This document shows, one piece after another, positions 18,788 to 49,660 of a DNA stretch of 64,000 bases; position 1 is the stretch's first letter; each line of letters begins with the position of its first letter. A program made the translations under genes and the position numbers. Source of the stretch: Pyxidicoccus trucidator (GTDB taxonomy: Bacteria; Myxococcota; Myxococcia; Myxococcales; Myxococcaceae). The DNA is taken from assembly GCF_010894435.1 (NCBI RefSeq), contig NZ_JAAIXZ010000014.1, positions 248,001-312,000 on the forward strand, in the 5' to 3' direction. Below the pieces are notes generated by a model that saw only the letters and a program-made list of their open reading frames with translations, was not told where the DNA came from and made no database searches.

Positions 18788-18835
18788 CCCACCATTGTCG
18801 TGAGGAGGAAGAAAAAGGTTCCGCGCCGCGAGGCG

Positions 18836-20215: not shown

Positions 20216-20252
20216 TGGAGGAAGTCAGGTGAAGGGTGGGGCGCCTGGGGGC

Positions 20253-23200
20253 TCAGCCTGGCCGGCGCCGGGATTCGGTGTCGCTCGCGTGGGTCCGGGC
20301 ACGTTCCAGCAGCGCGGCCAGGGCCGTCGCGAGTCGCTCCACGTAGGGAGCGCTCAAGAGGGAGTGGTGGTCTCCGGGCATCGTCAGGACGTCCACGTGC
20401 TCGGCCAGCGTGTCCCAGCCTCGCGCGGGGCCATGCTCGTCCAGGCCCTGAGTGTCCGCGCCCAGCAGCAGTGTGACGGTGCCGGCCTGTGGCTTCAGGG
20501 TGTGCGCGTGGAGCGCGCCCAGGTTGGCGGTGAAGACGCGCTCCAGCGCGGCCCGCTGCTCCGGGGACAGGCCCACGGCCTGCGCGGGCTCCGCGTCGAA
20601 GAGGCCCGCCAGCGCCGAGGCGTCTGGCAGCGGCTCGCCCTTGGCGTAGGAGGTGGGGCTCGGCTCGATGAGTGCCACCACGTCCACCTCCTCGCCGCGC
20701 AGGCGTAGCACGCGCGCCATCTCGAATGCGATGACCGCGCCGAGCGACCAGCCTCCCAGCCGGTACGGGCCGTGCGGCTGCACGGTGCGGAGGGCCTCGA
20801 TGTAGAAGTAGGCCATCTCCAGGATGGACTCCAGCGGAGGCTCCGCGCCGTCCAGGCCCTGCGCCTCCAGCCCGTAGAGGGGCTGCCGGGGACCGAGCTG
20901 ACGCGCCAGCTCCGCGAAGCCGAGGACACCGCCGCCCACCGGGTGCACGAGGAAGAACGGCGGCAGGTCTCCGCCCGGCTGGATGGGGACCAGTGGAATC
21001 CACGGCGCGGGCTCGCGCCGGGCGAGGGCGGCGAGCTGCTCCACCGTGGAGGCCTGGAACAGCGCCGCCAGGGGCAGCGTGCGTCCGGTCCGCTCGCGGA
21101 GCAGGCCCATGAGGCGCACCGCGAGCAGCGAGTGGCCGCCGAGCGTGAAGAAGTCGTCGTGGATGCCCACCGAGCGCGCTCCCAGCACCTCCTCGAACAG
21201 CCGCGCCACGGCCAGCTCCAGCGAGTCGCGCGGGGCGACGTGCGCCACGCCCGAGCCTTCCTGCCTCGGCGCCGGCAGCGCCCTCCGGTTCACCTTGCCG
21301 TTCGGCGTCAGCGGCAGCGCCTCCAGGACGACGAAGGCCGACGGCACCATGTACTCGGGCAGCCGCTCCTTGAGGAACGTGCGCAGGGCCGTGGCGTCCG
21401 CCGCGGCTTCCGTGCCCGTGGGGACCAGGTACGCCACGAGGCGCTTGTCGCCCGGAGCGTCCTCTCGCACCACCACCACCGTGTCGGCCACGCCCGGGTG
21501 AGCGCGCAGGGCGGACTCGACTTCTCCCAGCTCGATGCGGAAGCCGCGCACCTTCACCTGGAAGTCGATGCGGCCGAGGAAGTCCAGCGTGCCATTCGCG
21601 CGCCGGCGCACCCGGTCTCCCGTCCTGTACATGCGGGCGCCCGACCCGGCGTGGAACGGGTCCAGCATGAAGCGCTCGGACGTCAGCTCCGGGCGGTCCA
21701 GGTAGCCGCGCACCACGCCCTCGCCAGCGATGAACAGCTCACCGGGCACGCCCACCGGCACCGGCAGCAGGTGCTCGTCCAGGACGTAGAGCCGCGTGTT
21801 GGCGATGGGCCGACCGATGGAGACGGTGGCCGGCAAGTCGTCGCACATCACCGTGTACGTGGACGACCAGACCGTCGTCTCCGTCGGGCCGTACATGTTG
21901 GTGAGCGCCGCCGAGGGCAGGGCGGAGCGGAGCTGGCGCGCCAGCGAGCCGGGCAGCGCCTCGCCGCCGACGAGCAGGTGCTCCAGCGCGCCCAGGCCCG
22001 CCACCGTCTCCGGCGCCAGCACCAGCGAGCGCGCGAAGGACGGCGTGCACTGCAAGTGCGTCACGGCGTGGCGCCCCAGCAACTCCGGCAGCGTCGGAGC
22101 CGAGCCCATGCGTGCCGCCGCGTGCTCGTCATGCAGCACCACCTGGTAGCCGCGGCACAGCGTCCAGAGCAGCTCGAGGACGTGGATGTCGAAGGAGATG
22201 CTGGTGACGGCCAGCCACACGCCCGGCGTGCTGCTGCCCAGCAGCGCGTCCATGCCCGTGAAGAAGTTGGACACGGTGCGGTGGGGAACCACGACACCCT
22301 TGGGCCGCCCCGTGCTGCCGGACGTGTAGATGACGTAGGCGGCGTCATCCGGCGAAGCCTTCACGGTGTTGGTCCTGGCGCGCGAGCGGCTGGCGTCATC
22401 CTTCGGCCCGTCGAGGTGCACCACATGCCCGCCGTAGCCGGCGAAGGTGCCCGACAGGTGGTGCTGCGTGAGGAGCACCGTAGCTCCCGAGTCCTCCAGC
22501 ATCAGCGCCAGGCGCTCCGCCGGGTACACCGGGTCCAGGGGCAGGTAGGCGCCGCCCGCTTCGAGGATCGCGAGCATGGCGACGACCATGTCCACGGAGC
22601 GCTCGACGGACACGCCGACCCGCACATCCGGGCCCACACCGAGCGTCCGCAGCCGCCGGGCCAGGCGATCCACCTTCTGGCGCAAGCCGGCGTACGTCAC
22701 CCTCGACTCGCCGGACATCAGCGCCACCGCGCGGGGCGTGCGCTCCGCCTGCGCCGCGAACAGCTCGTGGATGCAGGACTCGCGGGCGTACTCCGTCTCC
22801 GTTGCGTTCCAGTCCATCAGGACCTGACGGCGCTCCGTCTCGCCCAGGAGGGCCAGCTCGGACACGCGCTGCCCCGGGTCTCCGGCCAGCCCCTCCAGCA
22901 GCTTCTGGAAGTGTCCGGCCATGCGGTGGATGGTGGCGGCCTCGAAGAGGTCCACGTCGTAGTTGAAGCCGGCCTCCAGCCCGTCCGCCGTCTCCTGCAT
23001 GGCGACGGAGAGGTCGAACTTCGACGTGCCGTTGTCGAGCGTCCGCTGGCTCACCGACACCCCCGGCAGCGCGGACTCGCCCATGGGGGCGTTCTGGAGG
23101 ACGAACATCACCTGGAAGAGCGGCTGGCGGGACAGGTCGCGCGTGGGCTCAAGCTCCTCGACCAGCTTCTCGAAGGGGATGTCCTGGTGCGCGTAGGCGC

Positions 23201-26200
23201 CCAGGGTGGACTCCTTCACGCGAGACAGCAGCTCACGGAAGGTCGGCGCGCCCTCCAGGCTGGTGCGCAGCACCAGCGTGTTGATGAACATGCCGAGCAG
23301 CGGCTCCAGCTCCTGCGTGCGGCGGCCCGCGATGGGCGTGCCGACCGCCAGGTCCTTCTGGCCGGAGTAGCGGCTGAGCAGCGCCTGGAAGCCCGCGAGC
23401 AGCACCATGAACAGCGTGGCGCCCTCCTGGCGGCCCAGGGCGCGGAGCGAGTCGCTGAGCTCCCGAGGCAGCTTGAACTCCACCGTGGCGCCCTGCTGGC
23501 GGCGCACGGCGGGACGGGGGAAGTCGGTGGGAAGCTCCAGCGGCTCCAGGCCGGCGAGCTGCTGGCGCCACCAGGAGCGCTGCGCGTCGAGCACCTCGCC
23601 CTGGAGCCAGCCGCGTTGCCACACGGCGTAGTCCGCGTACTGCAGCGGCAGCGTGGGCAGCGGCGACGGCTGGCCCTCCTTGAAGGCCGCGTAGAGCGCG
23701 CCCAGCTCGCGCACCAGCACGCCCACGGACCAGCCGTCCGAGACGATGTGGTGCATGTTGAGCAGGAGCACATGCTCGCTGGCGCCCAGCTTCAGCAGCG
23801 AGGCCCGGAGCAGCGGACCGTCCGTGAGGGAGAACGGCTGGCGTGCTTCGTCCTGGCCGCGGCGCTGCACCTCGGCGCGAGCCTCCGCGTCCGGCAGGGA
23901 GGACAGGTCCTCCAGCGGCAGCGTGAAGCGGGCGGGCGGGTGGATGACCTGGACGGGCTGTCCGTCCGCGCCCATGGCGAAGGTGGTGCGGAGCACCTCA
24001 TGGCGGTGCACCACCGTCTCGAACGCGCGGCGCAGCGCTTCGACGTCCACCGTGCCGGAGAGGCCCAGCGCCACCGGGATGTTGTAGGTCGCATCACCGG
24101 GGAGGAGCTGCTCCAGGACCCAGAGGCGCTGCTGCGCGAAGGACAGCGGGAGCGGCTGCTCGCGCGAGGTCTCCACCAGCGGCGGGAGCTGCGGGCCCTT
24201 CGTCAGGCCCAGGGCCTCGATGCGCTCCGCGAGCTGACCGGCCGTGCTGGCCTCGAAGAGGGCACGGAGGGGCAGCTCGACGCCCAGGCTGGCGCGGATG
24301 CGGGACACCACGCGCGTGGCCAGCAGGGAGTGCCCGCCGAGCGCGAAGAAGTCGTCGTTGAGCCCCACGGCGGGCAGGCCCAGCACCTCCGCGAACGCAT
24401 CGGCCAGGAGCTGCTGGACGGGCGTGTGGGCGGCATTGCCGGCCTCGGTGGCGGTGCCGGCCTGCGTGGTGGTCGGCGCGGGCAGCGCCTTGCGGTCCAC
24501 CTTGCCGTTCGGCGACAGGGGCAGCGCGTCCAGGACCACGAGGGCCGAGGGCACCATGTGTTCCGGCAGCTTCTGCTGGAGGAAGGTCCGGATGGAGGCG
24601 GTCAGCGCCGCGGGCTCTCCACCGTGTGCCGTCGCCGCCGCGACTACGTACCCGACGAGGCGCTTGTCACCCGGGGAGTCCTCGCGTGCAACCACCACCG
24701 CCTCGCGGACGCCCTCGTGCTGGCAGAGGACGGTCTCCACCTCTCCCGGCTCCACGCGGAAGCCACGCACCTTCACCTGGAAGTCGACGCGGCCGAGGTA
24801 CTCCAGCGTGCCGTCCTCCTTCCAGCGCACGCGGTCTCCGGTGCGGTACATGCGCTCGCCGTCCGCGGAGTGGAACGGGTCATCGAGGAAGCGCTCGGCG
24901 GTCAGGTCCGGGCGGCCCAGGTAGCCTCGGGCCACGCCGGCGCCGCCGATGAACAGCTCTCCGGGGACGCCCACCGGCACCGGCTGCCGCTGCTCGTCCA
25001 GGACGTAGAGCCGCGTGTTGCCAATGGGGCGGCCGATGGTGGCCGGCCCGTCCGCCCGGCGCAGGGCGTAGGTGGAGTACGTCGTCGTCTCGGACGGACC
25101 GTAGAGGTCGTAGACCTTCCACACGCCGGGCTGCGCGTAGAGCTGGCGCACCAGGGACGTGGGCAGCGGCTCGCCGGCCAGGTTCACCACGCGGACGCTC
25201 TCGGGCAGCGGGCCCGAGCGCAGCAGCTCCGCCATGACGGACGGCACCGTGTTCACCAGCGTGACGCGGTTGGCCGCAGGCAGCGTGTGCAGGGCCAGGG
25301 CGTTCTCCGCCATCACCACCGTGCCACCCGTGGTCAGCGGGAGGAACAGCTCGAAGACGGAGAGGTCGAAGTTGATGGACGTCGCGGCCAGCGTGCCGGT
25401 GAGCACCTCGGGCGGGAACACCGTGCGGGCCCAGGCCAGGAAGGCCACCGCGTTGCGGTGCTCAATCGCCACGGCCTTGGGCCGGCCCGTCGAGCCCGAC
25501 GTGTAGATGAGGTACGCGAGCTGGTGGCTGGAGACGACCGGCAGCGCGGCGGACGGCACGGCCAGGCCGGAGCCCACCTCGTCCGAGTCCACACAGAGCA
25601 CCCGCGCGGAGTGCTCCGGCAGGACGGACGCGAGCGACGCGCGGGTCAGCAGGAGCCGGGCCCCCGAGTCCTCCAGGATGAAGCCCAGCCGCTGGCGCGG
25701 GTAGGCCGGATCCAGCGGAACGTACAGGCCGCCCGCCTTGAGGATGGCCAGGAGCGAGACGACGAGGTCGATTCCGCGCTCCAGGCACACGCCCACCGGC
25801 GTCTCCGCACCCACGCCGAGCACGGCCAGCACTCCGGCGAGGTGGGTGGCGCGCTGCTCGAGCTGCGCGAAGGTGAGCGACTCCTCTCCGGAGATGAGGG
25901 CGACGGCGTCCGGCGTGCGCGCGGCCTGCTGCTCGAAGAGGGAGGCGAGCGAGGCGTCGCGCGGATGCTCCAGGTCCGTGGCGTTCCAGTCGACGAGGAC
26001 GCGCTGGCGCTCCTCGGCGCTCATCATCGTCACGTCCGCGAGCGTTTGCGTGGTGGGGGCCACCAGGGACACGAGTGCGCGGCCCCACTGCTCCAGGACG
26101 CGCTGGAGGCTCTCGCGCTCGAAGCGCGGCTCCTCGTAGGTGAGCTGCAGCTTCGTGGTGCGGCCCGGGAGCACGGTGGCGGTGAGGGGGTAGTGCGTGT

Positions 26201-29200
26201 GGTCTCCGCCCTCCACGTCCTTCAGCGACATGGCGCTGGTGCGCTGCTCCATCGACTCGTCGATGGGGTAGTTCTCGAAGACCAGCAGGGACTCGAACAG
26301 CGTGGTGCCACGTGGCACGGAGGACAGCGTCTGGACGTGGACGAGCGGGGTGTGCTCGTGGTTGCGCGTCTGCTGCTGTTGCTCGCGGAGCGCTTGCAGC
26401 CACGTGGCCACGGGGGTGGTCGTCACCGGCACGTGGATGCGCACGGGCACGGTGTTGATGAGCAGGCCCACCATGAGCTCGGCGCCGGGAAGCTCGGGCG
26501 GACGGCCGGCCACGGTGTTGCCGAAGACCACGTCCGGCTCGCCAGCATGGCGCGAGAGAACAAAGCCCCAGGCGGCCATGGTCAGCGTGGACAGCGTGAG
26601 CTGGTGCTGGCGCGCGAAGGCCTGGAGCGCGGCGGACTGCTGCTGCGTGAGAGGAAGCTCCAGCGTGTGCTGCCGGGCCTGGGTTCCAGCCGGAGGCGTG
26701 GCGTGGGTGTCCGCGGGCAGCGGCGTGGGAGCACTGAAGCCCTGGAGCGTGGTGCACCAGAAGGCGTCATCCGCCGCCGTGTCCCGGCGCTGGAGCCAGG
26801 CGATGTAGTCGCGGTACAGCGGCCGCGCCGGCAGCTTCGGCGCGCGCCCGGAGGCGAAGGCGTCGAAGAGGGTGAAGACGTCCTGGAGGATGGGGCTGAG
26901 GCTCCAGCCGTCCAGGAGCAGGTGGTGGTGGCTCCACAGGAAGCGCCACGTGTCGTCCGCCAGGCGCACCGCCGTCATGCGCATCAGCGGGGCATTGCGA
27001 AGGTCGAAGCCCCGGCGACGGTCCTCCGCCTGGAGCTCCGCGAAGCGGGCCTTCTGCTCGGCTGCGGGCACGGTGCGCCAGTCGAGCTGCGCCCACGGCA
27101 GCTCCGCGTGCGCGTGCACCACCTGGAGCGGAGCGTCGAGTCCCTCCCAGGCGAAGCCCGTGCGGAGGATGGGCGTGCGGTCGATGAGCGCCTGCCAGGC
27201 CCGGCGGAAGTGCGCCACGTCCATGGTGCCACTGGCCGTCCAGGCGAGCTGCTCGAAGTAGGCGCCGGACTCCGGGGACAGCAGCGTGTGGAAGAGCAGG
27301 CCCTGCTGGAGCGGGGACAGCGGGTAGAGGTCCTCCACGCTGGAGCCGTACCGCTGGAGCAGCGAGTCGAGCGCGGGCGGGGTGAGCGAGGCGAGCGGGA
27401 AGTCCGCCGTGCCGAGCCGCTTCGCGTCGTCGGAGTGGCTCTCGGTGATGAGGGCGCGCAGGTGCTTGAGGAAGCGCTTCGCCAGCGCCTCGATGGTGGG
27501 CTTGCGGTGCAGGTTCTCGCTGTAGGCGAACACGAGCTGCAGGCGCCCGCCGAGCACGGAGCCGCTGACCTCCAGCGGGTGCATGCGGAGCGCCTCGGGC
27601 GGCACTTCCGCGCCCGCGGGCTCGTTGGCGAACGAGAGCAGGGCCGCGGTGTCAGAGGACGCGTCGAGCTGTCCCAGGTAGTTGAAGGCCACCGGCGGCG
27701 TGGGCAGCGCACGGAGGGGCGCGCTGAGCTCGTCGGGCCCCAACGACTTGAGGATGCCGAAGCCGACACCGTGATGGGGGATGTGGCGCAGGGACTCGCG
27801 CACCGCGCGCAGGTTGTCGCCCGCCGTCCCGCCGCGAGGCAGGGACAGGTGCACCGGGTAGATGGAGGTGAACCAGCCCACCGTGCGGGACAGGTCCACG
27901 CCGTCGATGAGCGAGTCCTCGCGGCCGTGGCCTTCCAGGTCGAGCCAGATGTGGCCCTGGTCCGTCCAGTCCGACAGAGCCTGCGCCAGGGCCGTGAGCA
28001 GCACGTCCTGGAGGTTGCTGCGCCAGGCCGTGGGCACCTCGCGCTGCAAGGCACGGGTCTCTTCCGTGTCCAGCGTGAAGGTGACGGTGCGGGCGGAGGC
28101 GTAGGTGTTCGGGCCGGAGCTGTCCGTGGGCAGCGGCGCCGGGGGCGTGGCCGCATGACGGAGCCACCCCTGGGCCTCCTTCTTCATCGCGTCCGATTGG
28201 GCGTACTGCTGGAGCTTCTGCGCCCAGGTCTGGAAGGAGGTCGTCTTGGGAGGCAGGGCGGGCTGACCGCCTTGGAGCAGGCGCTGGTAGGTCGTCTGGA
28301 GGTCCTCCAGCAGCACGCGCCAGGAGACGGCGTCCACGACGATGTGGTGCACGCAGATGAGCAGCCGCTGGGTGGAGCCCAGGTTGAAGAGGGCCGCGCA
28401 CAGCAGCGGTGGCTGGCTCAGGTCGAAGGACGCCTGGAGGCGCGTGCCATGGGCTTCCAGCTCCCGACGCTGCTCCTCGGCCGGGAGCGCGGAGAGGTCA
28501 TGGTGCTCCAGGCGCAGGGGGGCCTCGTCGATGGAGGCGTTGTCCTGAGCCCAGGCGCCGTCGTCCTGCTGACGGAAGCGCAGGCGCAGGGCGTCGTGGT
28601 GGGCGAGCAGTGCACGCAGGGCCTTGTCCAGCACGTCCAGGTGCAGCGGCTGGTGGGCGGCCAGCAGCAGCGACTGGTTGAAGTGGTGCGGGTGGCTGGC
28701 CTGATGCTCCAGGAAGTAGCGCTGCACGGGCGTCAGCGGCACGGGGCCGGTGACGGGCCCCTGGTCGATGGTGGCCAGAGCGGAAGCGGAGCGTGCGGCG
28801 ACGGCCAGTTCCGCCACCGTCTGGTGCTGGAAGAGGTGACGCGCGGTGAGGGGGAAGCCGGCCTGACGCGAGCGGGAGACGACGAGCAGGCTGAGGATGG
28901 AGTCGCCACCCAGGGCGAAGAAGTTGTCGTGGACGCCCACGCGAGGCAGGCGCAGCACGGCGGCCCAGATGTCGGCCAGTCGCTGCTCCACCTCGTCTCG
29001 CGGCGCCGCGTACTCGCCCTGCGGGAGCTGGTGCGAGGCGTCCGGCGCCGGCAGCGCCTTCTTGTCCAGCTTGCCCGTCACGGAGAGGGGCAGGGCCTTC
29101 AGGACGACGAAGGCCGAGGGCACCATGTACTCGGGCAGCCGCTGCTTGAGCGCGGTGCGCAGGGGCGCCAGGTCCAGCTCCGGGGCCGCCGCGTCCTGGG

Positions 29201-38200: not shown

Positions 38201-41200
38201 GCTGGTTCGCCCGCTGCTCCAGCTCGGCGTACGTCACCTCCACGTCGCCCGCCACCACCGCCACCGCGGACGGCGTGCGGTCCGCCTGCGCCTCGAAGAG
38301 CGCGTGCACGCTGGCGTCCGCCGGGTACAGGGTGGAGGTGGCGTTCCAGTCCACCAGCACCTCGCGCAGCTCCGCGTCCGTCATCAGCTCCAGCGTGTCC
38401 ACGCGCTGCTGGGGCGCGCGGCAGATGCCCTCCAACAGCCGCTGGTAGTGAGCGACGAGCCGCTCCATCGTCGCGGCCTCGAACAGGTCCGCGTCGTAGT
38501 TGAGGTAGCCGCCCAGCCCCTGGGCCGTCTCCATCAGGGACAGCGTGAAGTCGAACTTGGAAGTGCCGTTGTCGATCTCCTGTAGGCGCACCGAGAGGCC
38601 CGGGAGCGCCGGGTCGCCCATGGGCGCGTTCTGCAGGGCGAACATCACCTGGAAGAGGGGCTGACGGGACAGGTCGCGCGTGGGCTCCAGCGCCTCCACC
38701 AGCTTCTCGAACGGGATGTCCTGGTGCGCGAAGGCCCCGAGCGTCATGTCCTTCACGCGCGACAGCAGCGTCCGGAACGTGGGCCGGTCCTCCATGCGCG
38801 CGCGCAGCACCAGCGTGTTCACGAACACACCGAGCAGCGACTCCAGCTCCTGGCTGCCACGCCCTGCTATGGGCGTACCCACCGTCACGTCCTGCTGCCC
38901 GGAGTACCGGGCGAGCAGCACCTGGAAGCCGGCGACCAGCACCATGAAGAGCGTGGCGCCCTCCTGGCGGGCCAGCTTCTGGAGGTCGTCGGCGAGCGCC
39001 TTCGGGAAGGCCACGCCCACCATGCCGCCGCGCTGGCGGCGCACGGCGGGACGCGCGAAGTCCGTGGGCAGCTCCAGCGGCGTGAGGCCCTGGAGCTGCT
39101 CCTTCCACCACGCGAGCTGCGTGTCGAGCACCTCCCCCTGGAGCCAGTCACGCTGCCATACGGCGTAGTCCGCGTACTGCACCGCCAGCTCCGGCAGCGG
39201 CGAGGGACGCTCGGCCTGGAAGGCCCCGTAGAGCATGGCCAGCTCGCGCACCAGCACGCCCACGGACCAGCCGTCGGAGATGCTGTGCTGCATGTTGATG
39301 CGCAGCACGTGCTCCTCGGTGCCCAGCTTCAGCAGCGAGGCGCGGAGCAGCGGGCCCTGGGAGAGGGAGAAGGGCTGGCGCGCGTCCTCCTGGCAGAGAC
39401 GGAGGGCCTCGGCGCGGGACTCCTCCGTGGACTCGGTGGAGACCTCCACCACGGGCAGCTCGAAGCGCGAGGGCGCGTGGATGAGCTGCGCGGGCACACC
39501 GCGCGTGACGGTGAAGGTGGTGCGGAGTACCTCGTGGCGGCGCACCAGCTCCTCGAAGGCGCGGCGCAGCGACTCCACGTCCAGGGCGCCGGACAGCCAG
39601 AGCGCGGCGGGGATGTTGTACGCGGCATCCCCGGGGATGAGCTGATCCACGAACCACAGGCGCTGCTGTGCGAAGGACAGCGGCAGCGAGCCCTCGCGCG
39701 AAGCTCGGACCAGCGCCGGGAGCCGGACCTGGGTGGCCGCGGCTTGCAGGTGCCGGGCGAGCATGGCGACGGTGGGCGCCTCGAAGAGGCCGCGCAGGGC
39801 CAGGGTGATGCCCAGGCTGGAGCGAATGCGCGACACCACGCGCGTGGCCAGCAGGGAGTGCCCGCCGAGCGCGAAGAAGTCATCATTCACGCCCACGCGC
39901 GGCAGGCTCAGCACCTCCGCGAAGGCGTCCGCGAGGAGCTGCTCCACGGGCGTGCGCGGGGCCTCGGCCGGGTCCGCGGACACCAGCTGGGGCGCGGCCG
40001 GCGCGGGCAGCGCCTTCCGGTCCAGCTTGCCCGTCGGGGACAGGGGCAGGGCGCCCAGGACGACGAAGGCCGAGGGCACCATGTACTCGGGCAGCCGCTG
40101 CTTGAGCGCGGCCCGCAGGGGCGCCAGGTCCAGGTCGGGAGTCGCGTCCTCCACGACCAGAGACGCGGACGACTTCGGGACGACGTAGGCGACGAGGCGC
40201 GGATCGCCCGAGGCGTCCTCGCGCACCAGCACCACCGCCTCGTGGACGGAGGGCTGGTCGAGCAGGGCGGCCTCAATCTCCCCCAGCTCGATGCGCAGGC
40301 CGCGCAGCTTCACCTGGAAGTCGATGCGGCCCAGGTACTCCAGCTCGCCGTCCGGCAGCCAGCGCGCCCGGTCTCCCGTGCGATACAGCCGGGCCCGGGG
40401 CTCGGTGCTGAACGGGTCCGTGAGGAAGCGCTCCGCGGTCAACTCCGGGCGGTTCAGGTAGCCGAGCGCCACGCCCACGCCGCCGATGTACAGCTCGCCC
40501 GGCACGCCCACGGGCAGCGGGCGCAGGCCCGCGTCCAGGACGTACAGTCGCGTGTTGGCGAACGGCCGGCCGATGGTGATGCGCTCCGGGTCCACCGGGC
40601 CCGGCGTCACCGAGGCGCACACCGTCGTCTCCGTCGGGCCGTACGCATTCAGCAGCAGGCGGCCCTCGCCCCAGCGGCGCGCCAGCGTGGGCGGCAGGGC
40701 CTCACCGGCGGAGGCCACCGTGCGCAGCGCGGGCAGACTCTCCGGCTGGAGCCGCGAGAGCACCGTGGGCGTGGACGTCACCGTGGTGATGCGCTGCGAG
40801 GCCAGCAGGGCCTGCAGCTCCTCGCCCGGCATCAGCTGCTCGCGCGGGGCCAGCACCAGCGTGGCGCCGGACAGCAGCACGGAGAAGACCTCCCACACCG
40901 ACGCGTCGAAGGCCGGCGACGCGAGCTGGAGCGCGCGCTCCCCGGGCGCCAGGCGCAGGCTTCGCGCCGCCGCCAGCGCCGTGTTCACCAGGCCGCGGTG
41001 GTGCAGCAGCGTGCCCTTGGGCCGGCCCGTGCTGCCGGACGTGTAGATGACGTACGCCAGGTCGTCCGGCGACAGGGCAGGGTGCTCCGCCTCCAGCAGG
41101 TCCATCCGGGAGACGCTGTACGCCAGCGCATCCGGCGTCAGGGGGAGGATGGACGCCTGGCCCGACGGAACTTCGTCCGCCACGTCCAGGCACACGCTCA

Positions 41201-43031
41201 GGGCCTCGTGCTCCGGGAGCCGCTCCAGGATGGCGCTGTGGGTCAGCAACACCTGTGCGGCCGAGTCCTGGAGCAGGTACGCCAGGCGCTCCGGCGGGTG
41301 CGCCGGATCCAACGGGAGGAACGCGCCTCCCGCCTCCAGGGTGGCGAGCATGGCGACCACGAGGTCGAAGCCGCCACGCTCCACGCACACCGCCACGCGG
41401 CTGTCCGCGCCCACGCCGAGTGAGCGCAGGTGCCCGCCGAGCTGGCGCATCCGCGCCTGGAGCTGGCGGTAGGTGAGGGACTCTTCACCGGAGACGAGGG
41501 CGAGGGCGTCCGGCGTGCGCTCCACCTGCTCGTGGAAGACGTGGTGCGCCACCGGGTCCGGGGGCAGCGCCACGGAGGAGTCGTTCCACTCCACCAGCAG
41601 CCGGCGGCGCTCGTCCTCGCCCATCAGCGGCAGCTCGGACAGCCGGGCGGACGGGTTGCGGACGATGCCCTCCAGCAGCCGCCGCAGGTGCGTCACCATG
41701 CGCGCCGCCGTCTCCGGCGTGAACAGGTCCGCCGCGTACCGCAGGGCGCCCATCATGTCGTAGCCCGTGTCCACCAGGTGCAGGTGCACGTCGAGCTGGC
41801 CGTCCTGCTGCGCGAAGAAGGGCACCGGCTCGCCCGGCAGCGAGGAGCCCGCGCCCAGCCCGGGCAGGCGCAGCATGGCGTCCACGGAGATGCCCGCCTC
41901 GATGAACTGCGGGCGGCTCGAGTCCGGCTTCATCCCCAGCCGCTCGGACAGCCGGTGGAAGGGGAAGTCCTGGTGCTCCAGCGCTCCCAGCACCTTCCGG
42001 TACAGGCGATCCTGCAGCTCGCTGAAGGTGGGGTCCCCCTCCAGGTCGCCGCGCATCACCACGAAGTTGACCAGGTACCCGGACAGCCGCTGGTGGTCCG
42101 GCTGCGTGCGGCCCGACATGGGCGTGCCCACCATGATGTCGGTGCGCCCGGTGTAGCGGTGCAGCAGCGTCTGCCACGCCGCCAGCATCACCGCGAAAAT
42201 GGTCTTGCCCTCGGTGCGCGCCAGCGCCCGGAGGCTGGCGGCCAGCTCCGGGCCGAAGCTCAGCTCATGCACCGCGCCCCGGAACGTCCACACCGGCGGG
42301 CGGGAGAAGTCCGCCGGCAGCTCCAGCGGCTGCGCTCCGCCCTGGAGTTCGCGCAGCCAGTACTCCTCCATCTTCAGCCCACGCGCGCCCGCGAGCATCT
42401 CCTTCTGCTGGCGCACATAGCCCGCGTAGTCCGTCGGCAGCGGGGCGAGCCGCGCGGACTCGCCGCCCGTCTCTTCGCGATAGAGTTGCTGGAGCTCCTC
42501 CAGCAGCATGGCCATGGACCACAGGTCGGTGGCGATGTGGTGGACGACGAGCAGCAGGACATGGTCCTGAGGCCCGACGGAGAAGATGTCCAGCCGCGCC
42601 ACGGGGCCCTGCTGGAGGTCGAACGGGCGCAGGTAGCTGCGCCGCATATGGACGAAGAGCTCCGGGTCCGTCACGCCGGGCACGTCGTGCTGCTCCAGCG
42701 CCACGCCCTGCCGCTCGTTGACCCGCTGGCGCGGGCCCTCGGCCGTCGTCTCGTACGTCGTCCGCAGCACGGCGTGACGGGCGGCCAGCCGCGCCAGGGT
42801 GCGCTCCATGGCCTTCAGGTCCACGGTGGCGTTGACGCGGATGGGTAGCGCCACGTTGTACGCGGCGCTCTCCGGCGCGAGCTGGTACAGGAACCACAGC
42901 CCCCACTGGTTCTCCGAGAGCGGAAACAGGGTGTTCGAGGACACCGACCCCTGCTGCTTCAGGAGGAGCGCCAGCTGCTGACGCTGCTCCGGAGACAGCG
43001 CCGCCAACCTATCCTTCAACGAGCCTTGCAT
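20253..43031 (-). CDS. Six-module nonribosomal peptide synthetase with C-terminal thioesterase
   Basis: This is a giant cytoplasmic assembly-line enzyme of 7592 aa. The ATG at 43031 is preferred over an in-frame ATG 33 bp upstream because an AGAGAGA site lies between them. Domain order is C-A-T, C-A-T, C-A-T-E, C-A-T-E, C-A-T, C-A-T-TE. Phosphopantetheine serines are S1059, S2118, S3184, S4711, S6235 and S7301. The carrier domains before the two E domains carry GGDSIL; the others carry GGHSLL. The TE nucleophile is S7429 in GGWSLGA, with a late GDHHSLL histidine. The first C domain would accept the acyl chain made by the upstream PKS (98 bp away). Hand-read pocket codes suggest Phe-Ile-D-Val-D-Leu-Ala-Gly. 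C domains after the E domains are of the D-accepting type (LYPLSPLQQGLLFH), consistent with the predicted stereochemistry. No MbtH-like gene or phosphopantetheinyl transferase is in the window. Confidence 0.97.
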   Translation of the reverse strand: MQGSLKDRLAALSPEQRQQLALLLKQQGSVSSNTLFPLSENQWGLWFLYQLAPESAAYNVALPIRVNATVDLKAMERTLARLAARHAVLRTTYETTAEGPRQRVNERQGVALEQHDVPGVTDPELFVHMRRSYLRPFDLQQGPVARLDIFSVGPQDHVLLLVVHHIATDLWSMAMLLEELQQLYREETGGESARLAPLPTDYAGYVRQQKEMLAGARGLKMEEYWLRELQGGAQPLELPADFSRPPVWTFRGAVHELSFGPELAASLRALARTEGKTIFAVMLAAWQTLLHRYTGRTDIMVGTPMSGRTQPDHQRLSGYLVNFVVMRGDLEGDPTFSELQDRLYRKVLGALEHQDFPFHRLSERLGMKPDSSRPQFIEAGISVDAMLRLPGLGAGSSLPGEPVPFFAQQDGQLDVHLHLVDTGYDMMGALRYAADLFTPETAARMVTHLRRLLEGIVRNPSARLSELPLMGEDERRRLLVEWNDSSVALPPDPVAHHVFHEQVERTPDALALVSGEESLTYRQLQARMRQLGGHLRSLGVGADSRVAVCVERGGFDLVVAMLATLEAGGAFLPLDPAHPPERLAYLLQDSAAQVLLTHSAILERLPEHEALSVCLDVADEVPSGQASILPLTPDALAYSVSRMDLLEAEHPALSPDDLAYVIYTSGSTGRPKGTLLHHRGLVNTALAAARSLRLAPGERALQLASPAFDASVWEVFSVLLSGATLVLAPREQLMPGEELQALLASQRITTVTSTPTVLSRLQPESLPALRTVASAGEALPPTLARRWGEGRLLLNAYGPTETTVCASVTPGPVDPERITIGRPFANTRLYVLDAGLRPLPVGVPGELYIGGVGVALGYLNRPELTAERFLTDPFSTEPRARLYRTGDRARWLPDGELEYLGRIDFQVKLRGLRIELGEIEAALLDQPSVHEAVVLVREDASGDPRLVAYVVPKSSASLVVEDATPDLDLAPLRAALKQRLPEYMVPSAFVVLGALPLSPTGKLDRKALPAPAAPQLVSADPAEAPRTPVEQLLADAFAEVLSLPRVGVNDDFFALGGHSLLATRVVSRIRSSLGITLALRGLFEAPTVAMLARHLQAAATQVRLPALVRASREGSLPLSFAQQRLWFVDQLIPGDAAYNIPAALWLSGALDVESLRRAFEELVRRHEVLRTTFTVTRGVPAQLIHAPSRFELPVVEVSTESTEESRAEALRLCQEDARQPFSLSQGPLLRASLLKLGTEEHVLRINMQHSISDGWSVGVLVRELAMLYGAFQAERPSPLPELAVQYADYAVWQRDWLQGEVLDTQLAWWKEQLQGLTPLELPTDFARPAVRRQRGGMVGVAFPKALADDLQKLARQEGATLFMVLVAGFQVLLARYSGQQDVTVGTPIAGRGSQELESLLGVFVNTLVLRARMEDRPTFRTLLSRVKDMTLGAFAHQDIPFEKLVEALEPTRDLSRQPLFQVMFALQNAPMGDPALPGLSVRLQEIDNGTSKFDFTLSLMETAQGLGGYLNYDADLFEAATMERLVAHYQRLLEGICRAPQQRVDTLELMTDAELREVLVDWNATSTLYPADASVHALFEAQADRTPSAVAVVAGDVEVTYAELEQRANQLARRLVDMRVGPEVRVGVCLERSVDLVVAMLAILKAGGAYVPLDPAHPAERLAYMLADSGVPILLTHGTLGEGLDAPGILLLNLDTERPVLGAMSHQRVRSHVTPDGLAYIIYTSGSTGRPKGVAVHHQAILRLVMETDYVRLTPEDRVAQLSNTSFDAATFEVWGALLCGARLVLVPRDTSLVPADLAKALRDGGVTTLFVTTALFNRMAREYPEGFATAKQVLFGGEASDPEAVRRLLEAGPPQRLLHVYGPTETTTFATWHRVESVDAGARSIPIGRPIANTTGYVLDAALRPVPRGVVGELYLGGDGVARGYHERPELTAEKFVSDPFSTVPGARLYRTGDLVRLRASGAIEFIGRVDHQVKLRGFRIELGEIETALQAHPGVTEAVVLVRDEHGDRKLVAYLVAAEGQQPMPAELREHLVRTLPEYMLPAAFVTLPAWPLNANGKVDRKALPAPTGEHAATTVAGGDAPSTPVQQLVADAFAQVLGLPAVGLGDDFFALGGHSLLATRVVSRIRSSLGFELPLRLLFEASTPGRLAERIESLGLTGTRLPPLERASREQPLPLSFAQQRLWFVDQLMPGDATYNMPVALWLTGTLDAESLRRAFEALVHRHEVLRTTFAAGPDAGQPVQVIHPPARFELALEDLSSRPDVEAREEVQRRAMDEARRPFSLADGPLLRTSLLKLGEREHVLLLNTHHSISDGWSVGVLVRELGTLYVAFHAGQPSPLPELPVQYADYAVWQRGWLQGEVLDTQLSWWRQQLAGLEPLELPTDFPRPAVRRQRGATVAARFPRAVADGLKSLARQEGATLFMVLVAGFQVLLSRYSGQKDVAVGTPIAGRRTQELESLLGMFINSLVLRASLEGNPTFRELLARVKESTLGAYAHQDIPFEKLVEALEPTRDLSRQPLFQVMFALQNAPASAPELPDVSVRLQEVDNGTSKFDLTVSLQETADGLEGTFNYDADLFEAATLERMVEHFGRLLEGVVTSADQRVAELPLLAERERRQLVSDWNATAVDYPRDASLSSLFERQVALTPNAVALVSEETTITYLELEQRANQLARLLRGLGVQEETPVCFCLERGVELIVAHLAILKAGGFYVPLDASYPAERLNSMLEDIQAPVLVTQRKLESAFAGRFATTLCMDALPAEAASIPVTPPPVATHGGSTAYVMFTSGSTGRPKGVLVPHRGVSRLVLGSTFMRFGPEERMMLAAPVTFDASTLEIWGALLHGARLALAPPHSLSLEDLASLSDRYSLTTMWLTAALFEQMTLHQPEALARVSQVLAGGDTLPVARVREHLARLPDGFVFVNAYGPTENTTFTTCHRMTRESRLGAAAPLGGPIANTRVYILDDTLHPVPVGVPGELFCAGDGLAHGYLHRPELSAEKFIPDPFSIEPGARMYRTGDRARWLADGTVDFLGRVDFQVKVRGFRIEPGEVEAALRTHEGVREAVVMAREDVPGNKRLVAYVVPVSPQEGHAATVDTAALRTYLKQKLPEYMVPAAFVLLDVLPLSPNGKVDRKALPTPDAAQVPQGEYTAPRDEVEQRLADIWAAVLRLPRVGIHDNFFALGGDSILSLLVVSRSRQAGFPLTARHLFQHQTVAELAVAARSASALATIDQGPVTGPVPLTPVQRYFLQHQASHPHHFNQSLLLAAHQPLHLDVLDKALRALLAHHDALRLRFRQQDDGSWVQDNASIDEAPLRLEHHDLSALSEAERLNVMEAHATRLQASFDLSQSPLLCAALFNLGSTQRLLICVHHIVVDAVSWRVLLEDLQTTYQRLLQGGQPALPPKTTSFQTWAQKLQQYALSDAMKKEAQGWLRHVDTPPAPLPTDRNGPNTFGSARTVTLALDTEETRALLREVPTAWRSNLQDVLLTALARSLADWTGRHDVWVNLEGHGREDSLIDGADLSRTVGWLTAIYPVLLPMPRNGTAGDGLRAVRESLRHIPHHGVGHSILKWLGPDELSAPLRALPAPQVAFNYLGQLDASSDANAILSLANEPSGAQFAADALRMHPLEVNGSVLDGRLSLLFIYSENLHEQTTIEALAKGFLAHLRTLITTSRSDDAKRLGTADFPLASLTQPVLDTLLQQQGPAVEDLYPLSPLQQGLLFHTVLSPESGVYFEQLAWTVSGAMAVEHFRQAWQGLVDRTPILRTSFAWADLESPLQVVHSHAELPWAQLDWRTVPAAEQKARFAQLLLDDRARGFDLRKAPLMRMTAVRLAEDTWRFLWSHHHLLLDGWSLSPVLQDVFVLFDAVASGREPKLPTRPPYRDYIAWLQRRDTEADDAFWRSALQGFSSPTPLPADTHVTPPEGQHAAQHMLEVALTVEQSNALQAFARQHQLTLSTLMMAAWGFVLGRHSGEQDVVFGNTVAGRPPELPGAEAMVGLLINTLPVRIPLPAGTTPVATWLQALQTQYQQSRNHEHTPLVHIQSLAPVPRGTPLFESLLVFENYPIDDSLTQRTSAMAVRDVEGVERTNYPITATILPGQKLRLRLTFEEPRFTRDSMGRVLDQWRLALLSLAAPETQSLADVTMMDAEERHRVVVEWNATDVAFPSEASVQHVFHQQVERTPEAPALIAGDTVLTFRQLQGRARQLAYRLEALGLGAEGRVALCLERGSPDLVVAMLATLEAGGAFLPLDPAHPPERLAYYLEDSHAQVLLTHRALVDRLPAHGAKVLCLDEEAELLSRLPEAPPAVSVGPERLAYVIYTSGSTGRPKGTLLHHRGLVNTALAIIQGLRIEPGQRALQLASPAFDASVWEVFSALLSGATLVLAQREQLLPGEPLQTTLAQQHISVLLATPTALATLQPEALPELRTVASGGEACPPALARSWVQGRTFLNAYGPTEVTIVATMTKGSMDPERLSIGRAIPNTRLYVLDAALRPQPVGVPGDLYIGGVGVARGYLDRPELTAERFIPDPFSTEPEARLYRSGDRVRWREDGQLEYLGRIDFQVKLRGLRIELGEIEAALLDQPTVHEAVVLVREDAPGDKRLVAYVVPKPPVSQDAAAPELDLAPLRTALKQRLPEYMVPSAFVVLKALPLSVTGKLDKKALPAPDASHQLPQGEYAAPRDEVEQRLADIWAAVLRLPRVGVHDNFFALGGDSILSLLVVSRSRQAGFPLTARHLFQHQTVAELAVAARSASALATIDQGPVTGPVPLTPVQRYFLEHQASHPHHFNQSLLLAAHQPLHLDVLDKALRALLAHHDALRLRFRQQDDGAWAQDNASIDEAPLRLEHHDLSALPAEEQRRELEAHGTRLQASFDLSQPPLLCAALFNLGSTQRLLICVHHIVVDAVSWRVLLEDLQTTYQRLLQGGQPALPPKTTSFQTWAQKLQQYAQSDAMKKEAQGWLRHAATPPAPLPTDSSGPNTYASARTVTFTLDTEETRALQREVPTAWRSNLQDVLLTALAQALSDWTDQGHIWLDLEGHGREDSLIDGVDLSRTVGWFTSIYPVHLSLPRGGTAGDNLRAVRESLRHIPHHGVGFGILKSLGPDELSAPLRALPTPPVAFNYLGQLDASSDTAALLSFANEPAGAEVPPEALRMHPLEVSGSVLGGRLQLVFAYSENLHRKPTIEALAKRFLKHLRALITESHSDDAKRLGTADFPLASLTPPALDSLLQRYGSSVEDLYPLSPLQQGLLFHTLLSPESGAYFEQLAWTASGTMDVAHFRRAWQALIDRTPILRTGFAWEGLDAPLQVVHAHAELPWAQLDWRTVPAAEQKARFAELQAEDRRRGFDLRNAPLMRMTAVRLADDTWRFLWSHHHLLLDGWSLSPILQDVFTLFDAFASGRAPKLPARPLYRDYIAWLQRRDTAADDAFWCTTLQGFSAPTPLPADTHATPPAGTQARQHTLELPLTQQQSAALQAFARQHQLTLSTLTMAAWGFVLSRHAGEPDVVFGNTVAGRPPELPGAELMVGLLINTVPVRIHVPVTTTPVATWLQALREQQQQTRNHEHTPLVHVQTLSSVPRGTTLFESLLVFENYPIDESMEQRTSAMSLKDVEGGDHTHYPLTATVLPGRTTKLQLTYEEPRFERESLQRVLEQWGRALVSLVAPTTQTLADVTMMSAEERQRVLVDWNATDLEHPRDASLASLFEQQAARTPDAVALISGEESLTFAQLEQRATHLAGVLAVLGVGAETPVGVCLERGIDLVVSLLAILKAGGLYVPLDPAYPRQRLGFILEDSGARLLLTRASLASVLPEHSARVLCVDSDEVGSGLAVPSAALPVVSSHQLAYLIYTSGSTGRPKAVAIEHRNAVAFLAWARTVFPPEVLTGTLAATSINFDLSVFELFLPLTTGGTVVMAENALALHTLPAANRVTLVNTVPSVMAELLRSGPLPESVRVVNLAGEPLPTSLVRQLYAQPGVWKVYDLYGPSETTTYSTYALRRADGPATIGRPIGNTRLYVLDEQRQPVPVGVPGELFIGGAGVARGYLGRPDLTAERFLDDPFHSADGERMYRTGDRVRWKEDGTLEYLGRVDFQVKVRGFRVEPGEVETVLCQHEGVREAVVVAREDSPGDKRLVGYVVAAATAHGGEPAALTASIRTFLQQKLPEHMVPSALVVLDALPLSPNGKVDRKALPAPTTTQAGTATEAGNAAHTPVQQLLADAFAEVLGLPAVGLNDDFFALGGHSLLATRVVSRIRASLGVELPLRALFEASTAGQLAERIEALGLTKGPQLPPLVETSREQPLPLSFAQQRLWVLEQLLPGDATYNIPVALGLSGTVDVEALRRAFETVVHRHEVLRTTFAMGADGQPVQVIHPPARFTLPLEDLSSLPDAEARAEVQRRGQDEARQPFSLTDGPLLRASLLKLGASEHVLLLNMHHIVSDGWSVGVLVRELGALYAAFKEGQPSPLPTLPLQYADYAVWQRGWLQGEVLDAQRSWWRQQLAGLEPLELPTDFPRPAVRRQQGATVEFKLPRELSDSLRALGRQEGATLFMVLLAGFQALLSRYSGQKDLAVGTPIAGRRTQELEPLLGMFINTLVLRTSLEGAPTFRELLSRVKESTLGAYAHQDIPFEKLVEELEPTRDLSRQPLFQVMFVLQNAPMGESALPGVSVSQRTLDNGTSKFDLSVAMQETADGLEAGFNYDVDLFEAATIHRMAGHFQKLLEGLAGDPGQRVSELALLGETERRQVLMDWNATETEYARESCIHELFAAQAERTPRAVALMSGESRVTYAGLRQKVDRLARRLRTLGVGPDVRVGVSVERSVDMVVAMLAILEAGGAYLPLDPVYPAERLALMLEDSGATVLLTQHHLSGTFAGYGGHVVHLDGPKDDASRSRARTNTVKASPDDAAYVIYTSGSTGRPKGVVVPHRTVSNFFTGMDALLGSSTPGVWLAVTSISFDIHVLELLWTLCRGYQVVLHDEHAAARMGSAPTLPELLGRHAVTHLQCTPSFARSLVLAPETVAGLGALEHLLVGGEALPGSLARQLRSALPSAALTNMYGPTETTVWSSTYTVMCDDLPATVSIGRPIANTRLYVLDEHLLPVPVGVPGELFIAGEGVVRGYLDRPELTSERFMLDPFHAGSGARMYRTGDRVRRRANGTLDFLGRIDFQVKVRGFRIELGEVESALRAHPGVADTVVVVREDAPGDKRLVAYLVPTGTEAAADATALRTFLKERLPEYMVPSAFVVLEALPLTPNGKVNRRALPAPRQEGSGVAHVAPRDSLELAVARLFEEVLGARSVGIHDDFFTLGGHSLLAVRLMGLLRERTGRTLPLAALFQASTVEQLAALARREPAPWIPLVPIQPGGDLPPFFLVHPVGGGVLGFAELARQLGPRQPLYGLEAQGLDGAEPPLESILEMAYFYIEALRTVQPHGPYRLGGWSLGAVIAFEMARVLRLRGEEVDVVALIEPSPTSYAKGEPLPDASALAGLFDAEPAQAVGLSPEQRAALERVFTANLGALHAHTLKPQAGTVTLLLGADTQGLDEHGPARGWDTLAEHVDVLTMPGDHHSLLSAPYVERLATALAALLERARTHASDTESRRRPG
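20260..24200 (-). other. NRPS module 6: C-A(Gly)-T-TE
   Basis: C domain about 24200-22816, with the MHHIVSDG motif. A domain about 22815-21275, with pocket residues D-I-L-Q-L-G-M-V-W-K in the ten standard positions; this closely matches the well-known glycine code. Carrier serine S7301 (GGHSLL ending at 21140). The type I thioesterase occupies about 21005-20260, with GGWSLGA around 20747. As the last module it sets the peptide C terminus and its release. Confidence 0.85.
24201..27379 (-). other. NRPS module 5: C(D-accepting)-A(Ala)-T
   Basis: C domain about 27379-25993, with LYPLSPLQQGLLFH and SHHHLLLDGWS, the type that follows an epimerase. A domain about 25992-24480, with pocket D-L-F-N-N-A-L-T-Y-K, which I know as an alanine code. 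Carrier serine S6235 (GGHSLL ending at 24338), with no epimerase following, so the residue should be L-Ala. Confidence 0.85.
27380..31960 (-). other. NRPS module 4: C(D-accepting)-A(Leu-like)-T-E
   Basis: C domain about 31960-30574; A domain about 30573-29050; carrier S4711 (GGDSIL); epimerase about 28765-27390 with HHIVVDAVSW, EGHGRED and RTVGWFT intact. The pocket reads D-A-W-L-A-G-A-I-V-K, nearest in my knowledge to a leucine code (DAWLYGAVMK). This is the least certain of the six assignments. The residue should be delivered in D form. Confidence 0.75.
28150..29010 (-). repeat. Near-identical carrier-epimerase repeat, copy 2
   Basis: This covers the end of the module 4 A domain, the carrier and the first part of the epimerase. 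The direct repeat of the segment 4581 bp away (32731-33591) is almost base-for-base. In the stretch around 28786-28936 I see only one difference. The offset equals 1527 codons, one C-A-T-E module. Confidence 0.8.
31961..36545 (-). other. NRPS module 3: C-A(Val-like)-T-E
   Basis: C domain about 36545-35169, with THHSISDGWS; A domain about 35168-33620; carrier S3184 (GGDSIL ending at 33491); epimerase about 33345-31965 with HHIVVDAVSW, EGHGRED and RTVGWLT. The pocket reads D-A-L-W-L-G-A-T-F-K, close to the valine group (DAFWIGGTFK and variants). D-Val is the best estimate, with other small branched residues possible. Confidence 0.78.
32731..33591 (-). repeat. Near-identical carrier-epimerase repeat, copy 1
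   Basis: This is the partner of 28150-29010. The two epimerases match closely up to the motif KKEAQGWLRH and then diverge, so the boundary of recent duplication or gene conversion lies inside the epimerase domain. Confidence 0.8.
36546..39735 (-). other. NRPS module 2: C-A(Ile-like)-T
   Basis: C domain about 39735-38354, where the usual HHxxxDG reads QHSISDG: the first histidine is glutamine but the catalytic second histidine is kept. A domain about 38353-36830, with pocket D-A-F-F-L-G-V-T-F-K, intermediate between two known isoleucine codes. Carrier serine S2118 (GGHSLL ending at 36689); no epimerase. Confidence 0.78.
39736..43031 (-). other. NRPS module 1: C(acyl-accepting)-A(Phe-like)-T
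   Basis: The first C domain (about 43000-41593) has HHIATDLWS, with leucine in place of the usual glycine after the aspartate; this fits a non-canonical domain that takes a polyketide acyl donor. A domain about 41592-40010, with pocket D-A-W-T-A-A-A-V-C-K, near the phenylalanine code of gramicidin and tyrocidine synthetases. Carrier serine S1059. The N-terminal 30 residues (LKDRLAALSPEQRQQLALLLKQ) form a helix likely to dock with the PKS. Confidence 0.78.
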
Positions 43032-43065
43032 GTCCGCGTCTCTCTCTGGATGCACTTCAGGCAAG

Positions 43066-43087
43066 GGGGGCCCCCGAGGGGGCCCCC
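43066..43087. promoter_or_regulatory. Tandem GGGGGCCCCC palindromes between PKS and NRPS genes
   Basis: Two copies of the 10-bp self-complementary block GGGGGCCCCC (43066-43075 and 43078-43087) are separated by GA in the 98-bp PKS-NRPS gap. In RNA they can fold into one very stable hairpin about 35 bases before the NRPS start. It could attenuate, pause or stabilise the transcript. There is no U-tract, and the NRPS needs read-through, so a full terminator is unlikely. Confidence 0.5.
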
Positions 43088-43129
43088 GCCGATGTGGACG
43101 AACCGTGGGAATGACTGAAGAGGGCCTGC

Positions 43130-48817
<5,688 letters not shown>

Positions 48818-48856
48818 GTTTCACTTCCCCCTCTGAAATTCGACCTTCCCCAGATG

Positions 48857-48886
48857 TTGACAGGTCGCCGTCAGGGCCCCTATTAC
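48857..48886 (+). promoter_or_regulatory. Candidate promoter for the gene at 49005
   Basis: A perfect -35 TTGACA (48857-48862), an 18-bp spacer and TATTAC (48881-48886, four of six matches) point rightwards, predicting a leader of about 110 bases before the ATG at 49005. It lies back to back with the candidate PKS promoter. Confidence 0.45.
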
Positions 48887-48910
48887 TTCAATCCCTGACA
48901 GATGTTTGTT

Positions 48911-48938
48911 ATTACAGGAAACCTTCACTCCCGGTCAA
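48911..48938 (-). promoter_or_regulatory. Candidate promoter for the PKS-NRPS operon
   Basis: On the minus strand, TTGACC (48938-48933) and TGTAAT (48916-48911) are separated by 16 bp, each matching five of six sigma-70 consensus positions. The predicted start near 48904 leaves an 87-base leader before the PKS ATG. The 187-bp intergenic region is distinctly AT-rich relative to its surroundings. Confidence 0.5.
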
Positions 48939-49004
48939 TCACGATAATCGGACCAACGCTCCAGGGTGGAAACCCTGGCATCGGGAGCTGAACCAGGAGG
49001 AGTC

Positions 49005-49655: not shown

Positions 49656-49660
49656 GGTGG

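What the first reader, a model, noticed from the sequence alone, without database searches (positions are those of the whole stretch)
20253..48817. PKS-NRPS locus predicting an acylated hexapeptide not recognised as a known compound
A single PKS module and a six-module NRPS with TE form one assembly line. Pocket residues read against GrsA give DAWTAAAVCK, DAFFLGVTFK, DALWLGATFK, DAWLAGAIVK, DLFNNALTYK and DILQLGMVWK, suggesting acyl-Phe-Ile-D-Val-D-Leu-Ala-Gly. The epimerases and the D-accepting condensation domains agree. I know of no myxobacterial peptide with this order, though my recall is limited.
Basis: partly seen in the sequence, partly recalled or inferred. Interest (0 to 1): 0.75.

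Follow-up and report, generated by a model that had tools for sequence, protein, structure and literature searches.

The report
Myxobacterial gene cluster for polyene lipopeptide
A myxobacterium of the Myxococcus/Pyxidicoccus group carries an enzyme assembly line that most likely joins a polyene fatty chain to six amino acids, and close relatives carry versions with one amino acid exchanged and the last one missing, so the product is probably new but of a known type.

Summary
Window 20253-43064(-) encodes a six-module NRPS (C-A-T, C-A-T, C-A-T-E, C-A-T-E, C-A-T, C-A-T-TE) and 43130-48817(-) a KS-AT-DH-KR-ACP PKS. An MFS exporter gene (18836-20215) belongs to the cluster.

Two additions. (1) The PKS is probably iterative: its KS lies in a supported clade with PKSs of the tetramate macrolactam and myxochromide types, and its receiving C domain groups with theirs, so the acyl group is likely a polyene. 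(2) Orthologous clusters exist: P. fallax has six modules and nearly the same codes; P. caerfyrddinensis and an unnamed relative lack the last module and carry a Thr-type A domain in module 3, which is 88% identical to one in another NRPS of the unnamed relative, a natural A-domain exchange.

Residues: Ile2 best supported; Phe1 likely; residue 3 Val-like; Ala5 and Gly6 by recalled codes; residue 4 open. Release is probably hydrolytic (linear).

No characterised match appeared in the listings of the open-paper searches; MIBiG was not available. A new member of a known kind.

The parts
20253..43064 (-). Six-module NRPS with C-terminal thioesterase; an alternative ATG start lies 11 codons in (43031)
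   Evidence: ORF, translation, Pfam, motifs
43130..48817 (-). Type I PKS, KS-AT-DH-KR-ACP, no ER found; KS Cys/His/His, AT Ser, DH His and Asp, KR Tyr and ACP Ser motifs present
   Evidence: Pfam, motifs, KS tree
18836..20215 (-). MFS exporter, 37 bp after the NRPS, conserved with the cluster
   Evidence: Pfam, NCBIfam, orthologues of 83-87% next to the NRPS in G023, G010 and P. fallax
41625..42935 (-). C1, receives the PKS acyl chain; groups with C domains of tetramate macrolactam-type and myxochromide-type lines
   Evidence: tree; coordinates approximate
40011..41552 (-). A1, code DAWTAAAVC(K), Phe-like
   Evidence: near codes
36840..38297 (-). A2, code DAFFLGVTF(K), Ile (Val tolerated)
   Evidence: same code in cyanopeptolin synthetase
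33636..35102 (-). A3, code DALWLGATF(K), Val-like; a Thr-type A domain stands here in G023 and G010
31995..33332 (-). E3, epimerisation domain of module 3
   Evidence: motif HHIVVDAVSW, tree
29058..30527 (-). A4, code DAWLAGAIV(K), substrate not assigned (hydrophobic; Leu a guess); code identical in all four complete clusters
27420..28757 (-). E4, epimerisation domain of module 4
24489..25937 (-). A5, code DLFNNALTY(K), Ala by recalled code
21279..24488 (-). T5-C6-A6 unit, A6 code DILQLGMVW(K), Gly by recalled code; present here and in P. fallax, absent in G023 and G010, joint in the A-T linker; borders approximate
20295..20960 (-). Thioesterase, GWSLG and GDHHS motifs
   Evidence: Pfam
12044..49833 (.). 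Sequence present here but replaced by about 0.8 kb (G021) or 0.4 kb (G002) in two relatives without the cluster at this place

Best explanation
A three-gene cluster (PKS, NRPS, MFS exporter) that makes and exports an N-polyenoyl hexapeptide. The stand-alone KS-AT-DH-KR-ACP PKS is probably used several times over, each cycle adding malonate, reducing and dehydrating, to give a conjugated polyene acyl chain on its ACP. C1 of the NRPS couples that chain to residue 1; the modules add Phe-Ile-Val-X-Ala-Gly, with residues 3 and 4 epimerised to D before C4 and C5 take them on (X hydrophobic, Leu by guess). The TE most likely releases a linear acid, because neither the predicted residues nor a polyene chain offers a nucleophile for ring closure. 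Shown by sequence: genes, domains, motifs, codes, orthology. Inferred: iteration, polyene, residues, D-configuration, linear release, export.
For: Domains, motifs and strand. KS tree of 70 KS: the window KS lies in a 37-row clade (100/97) with tetramate macrolactam-type PKSs, three myxochromide-type PKSs and six Bacillota PKSs; the six KS of a modular Myxococcus line and the 14 other own-genome KS found at E <= 1e-40 fall outside. C1 groups at 99 (SH-aLRT, 10 rows) with C domains of two tetramate macrolactam-type and three myxochromide-type lines. Iteration in these types: passages of PMC8399814 and the title of the 2005 myxochromide paper in the reference list of PMC10204066. C4 and C5 group with the C domain that follows E in the myxochromide-type lines (98, 11 rows). 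The same three genes in the same order occur in P. fallax, P. caerfyrddinensis and G010. Codes for Ile, Thr, Phe and Val compared with papers.
Against: KS identity alone does not separate it: listed matches to other Myxococcus KS are 52-62%, to tetramate macrolactam-type KS 55-59%. The 37-row clade also holds PKSs of unknown product (mycobacterial, Methylocystis, four other myxobacterial). The window's group is sister to, not inside, the sub-clade that holds both known iterative types, and the next branch out (three rows) includes first modules of longer PKS lines. The Bacillota C1 domains do not join the C1 group, and that tree had no bootstrap and flagged the C4/C5-myxochromide join among long branches that meet. 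The A4 substrate is unknown. No product, no expression data, no MIBiG comparison.
Confidence: 0.68

Rival explanations
1. The PKS works once only: it extends a fatty acyl starter from primary metabolism by two carbons to a 2-enoyl chain, giving an ordinary fatty-acyl lipohexapeptide.
For: One module with DH and KR and no ER gives a 2-enoyl group in a single pass; the KS group branches just outside the sub-clade with the known iterative PKSs.
Against: No loading domain, acyl-CoA ligase or extra carrier protein in the PKS or in the neighbouring ORFs scanned with Pfam (not every ORF of the window was scanned); C1 groups with C domains that accept chains from iterative PKSs.
Confidence: 0.2
2. The product is cyclic: the TE closes a lactone onto a 3-hydroxy group left in the chain when the last dehydration is skipped.
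For: TE of the Thioesterase family with Ser and His motifs; myxochromides, the closest analogue, are cyclic depsipeptides.
Against: DH motifs present; no Ser/Thr-type code in this strain's modules; in myxochromide A residue 1 is Thr, here it is Phe-like; the variant with Thr has it at position 3 of 5.
Confidence: 0.2
3. The gene order and codes belong to a characterised myxobacterial peptide that the searches missed.
For: MIBiG and subscription papers were not searchable here; P. fallax and P. caerfyrddinensis carry relatives of the cluster.
Against: Neither the code searches nor the listed part of the topic searches showed such a compound; a 2025 survey gives myxoprincomide as the characterised cluster conserved in Pyxidicoccus beyond five phylum-wide ones (passages of PMC12766979).
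Confidence: 0.12

Closest known systems
Myxochromide synthetase (mchA-C; Myxococcus, Stigmatella)
   Same: Stand-alone iterative-type PKS followed by a 5-, 6- or 7-module NRPS ending in TE; module number differs between strains; KS clade and C1 group shared
   Different: Two NRPS genes, not one; larger PKS (2151-2152 aa against 1895) with a longer DH-KR spacing; E in module 2 only; Thr-Pro/Ala-Leu-Pro-Ala/Phe-Gln against Phe-Ile-Val-X-Ala-Gly; cyclic depsipeptide (passages)
Polycyclic tetramate macrolactam PKS-NRPS (HSAF, frontalamide, ikarugamycin)
   Same: KS-AT-DH-KR-ACP PKS, 42% identical in the best segment in L046 (Streptomyces griseus) and L053 (S. albidoflavus); their C domain groups with C1
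   Different: PKS and one NRPS module fused, C-A-PCP-TE with ornithine and Dieckmann release, FAD oxidoreductases and a dedicated sterol desaturase; here the PKS stands alone before six modules
Epifadin synthetase (Staphylococcus epidermidis)
   Same: Peptide polyene built by NRPS and iterative PKS (passages)
   Different: trans-AT PKS, peptide first and polyene after it, tetramate end

Membership tests
PKS-NRPS lipopeptide assembly lines | PKS with ACP feeding a C-A-T modular NRPS with TE | tested here: met
   Pfam; motifs and the 65-bp gap between the genes
Iterative polyene type I PKS (myxochromide / tetramate macrolactam type) | KS within the clade of these PKSs | tested here: met
   37-row clade 100/97, modular KS outside; the window's group is sister to the sub-clade with the known iterative ones, so the support is partial
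Iterative polyene type I PKS (myxochromide / tetramate macrolactam type) | Polyene product made by repeated use of one module | not testable with these tools
   needs enzyme or product
Myxochromide family | Thr-type module 1 with N-methyltransferase, E in module 2, Gln last | tested here: not met
   codes; no methyltransferase in the Pfam lists; E in modules 3 and 4; family pattern
Polycyclic tetramate macrolactam family | PKS fused to a single C-A-PCP-TE, with sterol desaturase and FAD oxidoreductases in the cluster | tested here: not met
   separate six-module NRPS; no FAD oxidoreductase among the neighbouring ORFs scanned except acyl-CoA dehydrogenases of a flanking gene set; the FA-hydroxylase neighbour occurs without the PKS in relatives
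Linear lipopeptide | TE releases a free acid | not testable with these tools
   argued from absence of nucleophiles only

The most novel reading that the evidence does not exclude
A new family of polyene lipopeptides in Pyxidicoccus, diversified in nature by two clean NRPS recombinations: exchange of a whole A domain (Val-type for Thr-type) with another NRPS of the lineage, and gain or loss of a T-C-A unit at the A-T linker that turns a hexapeptide line into a pentapeptide line with the same terminal T-TE.
Probability: 0.6. Interest if true: 0.5.

Novelty: new member of a known kind. Interest (0 to 1): 0.4.

Why it matters
It points to an undescribed polyene lipopeptide family with a small, self-contained three-gene cluster suitable for cloning. 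The four complete orthologous clusters are a natural experiment for NRPS engineering: an A-domain exchange with mapped borders, and a T-C-A unit gained or lost before the same T-TE, in assembly lines that are otherwise about 85-89% identical. Similar recombinations are known in other NRPS families (recalled), so the principle is not new.

Tried and rejected
FA-hydroxylase as a tailoring gene: the gene 49834-50958(-) upstream of the PKS (PF04116) looked like the sterol desaturase beside tetramate macrolactam PKSs (24-34% identity to such neighbours). Rejected as a dedicated cluster gene: it is at least 80% identical in 16 of the 25 genus genomes (own included), stands without the PKS in 8 of the 10 relatives' stretches examined (the G012 and G019 stretches being only 19 and 8 kb), and was not found on the P. 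fallax contig that holds the PKS. A recruited role is not excluded.

KS percentage identity as proof of iteration: rejected, because listed matches to other Myxococcus KS are 52-62%; only the trees were used. A first tree of 85 KS, without Myxococcus modular lines, left the place of the window's group among the others unresolved.

Polarity of the module-6 event: M. dinghuensis has a PKS orthologue at a contig end and an A-T-TE plus MFS at the end of another contig; the middle of its NRPS was not found, so gain or loss stays open. The direction of the A3 exchange is open too.

Recent donor for module 6: the non-orthologous A6 matches listed for the four genomes are 59-66%, so none was seen.

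Selection in the trees: 33 of the 80 loci went into the tree, where matches under 340 residues were left out (number not printed), 5 of 69 domain hits were left out as shorter than 300 residues.

Full report
What is there. The window is G000:C14:248001-312000 of a 12.67 Mb genome. The nearest named relatives for the PKS are Pyxidicoccus fallax DSM 14698 (85%) and P. caerfyrddinensis CA032A (83%), then Myxococcus dinghuensis (64%). The NRPS is one ORF of 7603 codons at 20253-43064(-) and the PKS one ORF of 1895 aa at 43130-48817(-), 65 bp apart; an MFS gene follows 37 bp after the NRPS (Pfam). Codon-position GC points to the minus strand in every 600-base window from 20401 to 49200; the one straddling the MFS-NRPS border reads otherwise.

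Domains. PKS: KS-AT-DH-KR-ACP, with DTACSS, HGTGT and NIGH in the KS, GHSTG and VPFH in the AT (malonyl-like, by a recalled rule), HxxxGxxxxP and DxxxQ in the DH, GGRGGLG and YAASN in the KR, and LGLDSI in the ACP; neither Pfam nor a motif search found an ER. NRPS: six C, six A, six T, two E after T3 and T4, and one TE. Codes, read at recalled GrsA positions on an alignment of the A domains: DAWTAAAVC, DAFFLGVTF, DALWLGATF, DAWLAGAIV, DLFNNALTY, DILQLGMVW, with the A10 lysine present in each domain.

Residues. DAFFLGVTFK is the code of the Ile positions (Val tolerated) in cyanopeptolin synthetase (passage of PMC2533009) and goes with l-Ile or d-allo-Ile in related inhibitors (passage of PMC13122637). 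DAWTVAAVCK was predicted to be Phe in lunaemycin (passage of PMC9866976), and DAWTIAGVCK sits at an N-methyl-Phe position in cyanopeptolin. DALWMGGTFK is quoted as a Val code (passage of PMC3943440), but DALWMGGVFK goes with l-allo-Ile, so residue 3 is Val-like rather than Val. Ala and Gly for modules 5 and 6 rest on recalled codes. Of the six codes only DAFFLGVTF was found in print (2 papers) in the search of 5.39 million open papers; DAWLAGAIV was not, and Leu for module 4 is a guess.

The PKS is probably iterative. A tree of 70 KS placed the window KS in a 37-row clade (100/97) with PKSs of the tetramate macrolactam type, three myxochromide-type PKSs, six Bacillota PKSs and others of unknown product (mycobacterial, Methylocystis, four myxobacterial); the six KS of a modular Myxococcus line and the 14 other own-genome KS found at E <= 1e-40 lie outside. 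The tetramate macrolactam type was recognised by fusion of the PKS to a C-A module; one row is Streptomyces griseus, whose SGR810-815 cluster is named in PMC8399814. Five of the six Bacillota PKSs have an NRPS on the same strand directly downstream. The myxochromide loci were recognised by architecture (PKS; two modules with E in the second; then three or four modules with TE) against the published pattern (passages of PMC9581180); their N-methyltransferase was not tested. In a tree of 72 C and E domains C1 groups at 99 with the C domains of two tetramate macrolactam-type lines and C1 of the three myxochromide-type lines; C4 and C5 group at 98 with the C domain that follows E in the latter; C2, C3 and C6 fall in another part, with the remaining myxochromide C domains. 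That a single PKS module is used iteratively to make polyene chains is stated for the tetramate macrolactams in PMC8399814 (passages), and iteration for myxochromide in the title of a 2005 paper seen in a reference list.

Against iteration. KS identities do not discriminate. The window's group is sister to the part of the clade that holds the known iterative PKSs, and the next branch out (three rows) includes first modules of longer lines. The C1 domains of the Bacillota loci do not join the C1 group; the C tree is a quick one, without bootstrap, and reported the C4/C5 join with myxochromide among long branches that meet. A single extension of a fatty acyl starter remains the main rival.

Relatives. 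A KS orthologue (at least 74%) is in 5 of 27 genus genomes, the next best match being 62%; with the DH-KR segment, 5 of 96 family genomes have a match of 52% or more, and the other matches listed at E <= 1e-60 are 31-38%. G012 is P. fallax and G023 is P. caerfyrddinensis, by matching contig numbers and lengths. P. fallax has the same six-module NRPS (7554 aa, 86%, 86.8% over the alignment) and MFS. G023 and G010 have five modules (6487 and 6488 aa). In M. dinghuensis the PKS and the start of the NRPS end at a contig edge, and an A-T-TE end followed by an MFS gene (55%) begins another contig; that these belong together is inferred.

Two natural recombinations. Window against G023 is 86.4% identical over residues 1-2600 and 85.3% over 3180-6180, but 47.4% over A3 (2655-3143), where window against P. 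fallax is 84.3% (60-column steps). The code there is DALWLGATF in the window, DALWLGGTF in P. fallax and DFWNIGMVH, the Thr code of cyanopeptolin, in G023 and G010. The Thr-type A domain of G023 is 97% identical to that of G010 and 88% to an A domain of another NRPS in G010 (open frame 11315 aa); the next best match in the four genomes searched is 65%. Against that second NRPS the G010 cluster is 80-98% identical in DNA over residues about 2633-3160 and 58-77% on either side. The borders are those of the A domain; the direction is not known. Second, G023 and G010 lack T5-C6-A6: their A5 runs straight into a T-TE that matches T6-TE of the window, the joint lying in the A-T linker. The hexapeptide line of the window and P. 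fallax thus faces a predicted pentapeptide line (Phe-Ile-Thr-X-Ala) in the other two.

Place. Between window 12043 and 49834 two relatives without the cluster there, G021 and G002, have only about 0.8 and 0.4 kb; G023 and G010 hold the cluster between the same flanks, and P. fallax shares the 12043 flank. That flank is a fatty-acid beta-oxidation gene set (two acyl-CoA dehydrogenases, enoyl-CoA hydratase, 3-hydroxyacyl-CoA dehydrogenase), shared with the cluster-free relatives and so not part of the cluster. The two genes at 12097-18778 (M4 peptidase and Ig domains) were not found in the relatives' stretches searched. The FA-hydroxylase gene upstream is shared by part of the genus and is not a cluster gene on present evidence.

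Known or new. The listings of the open-paper searches showed no compound of this order; only the top rows of the larger result sets were seen. A 2022 review counts the myxochromides as the one lipopeptide family characterised from Myxococcus (passage of PMC9581180); a 2025 survey gives myxoprincomide as the characterised cluster conserved in Pyxidicoccus beyond five phylum-wide ones (passages of PMC12766979). MIBiG and subscription papers could not be searched. The verdict is a new member of a known kind, polyene PKS-NRPS lipopeptides, neither a myxochromide nor a tetramate macrolactam by the tests above.

Noticed in passing
12097-15399(-) and 15422-18778(-): Two tandem proteins of 1100 and 1118 aa with M4-type peptidase and bacterial Ig domains next to the cluster, not found in the stretches of relatives that hold the cluster.
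   Followed up: partly
49834-50958(-): FA-hydroxylase family gene upstream of the PKS, conserved in part of the genus without the PKS, by chance or not resembling the sterol desaturase beside tetramate macrolactam PKSs.
   Followed up: yes
L200 (G010:C1:11570001-11590000): A second very large NRPS (open frame 11315 aa) whose Thr-type A domain is the likely exchange partner of A3 in the G010/G023 clusters.
   Followed up: partly
L016-L018, L020, L039, L083: Bacillota (Tumebacillus, Bacillus glycinifermentans, B. sonorensis, Jeotgalibacillus, Paenibacillus) hold stand-alone PKSs of the same type, five of six with an NRPS directly downstream; their products were not looked up.
   Followed up: no
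own genome G000: 111 condensation-domain matches, several in open frames above 10000 aa: a very NRPS-rich genome.
   Followed up: no
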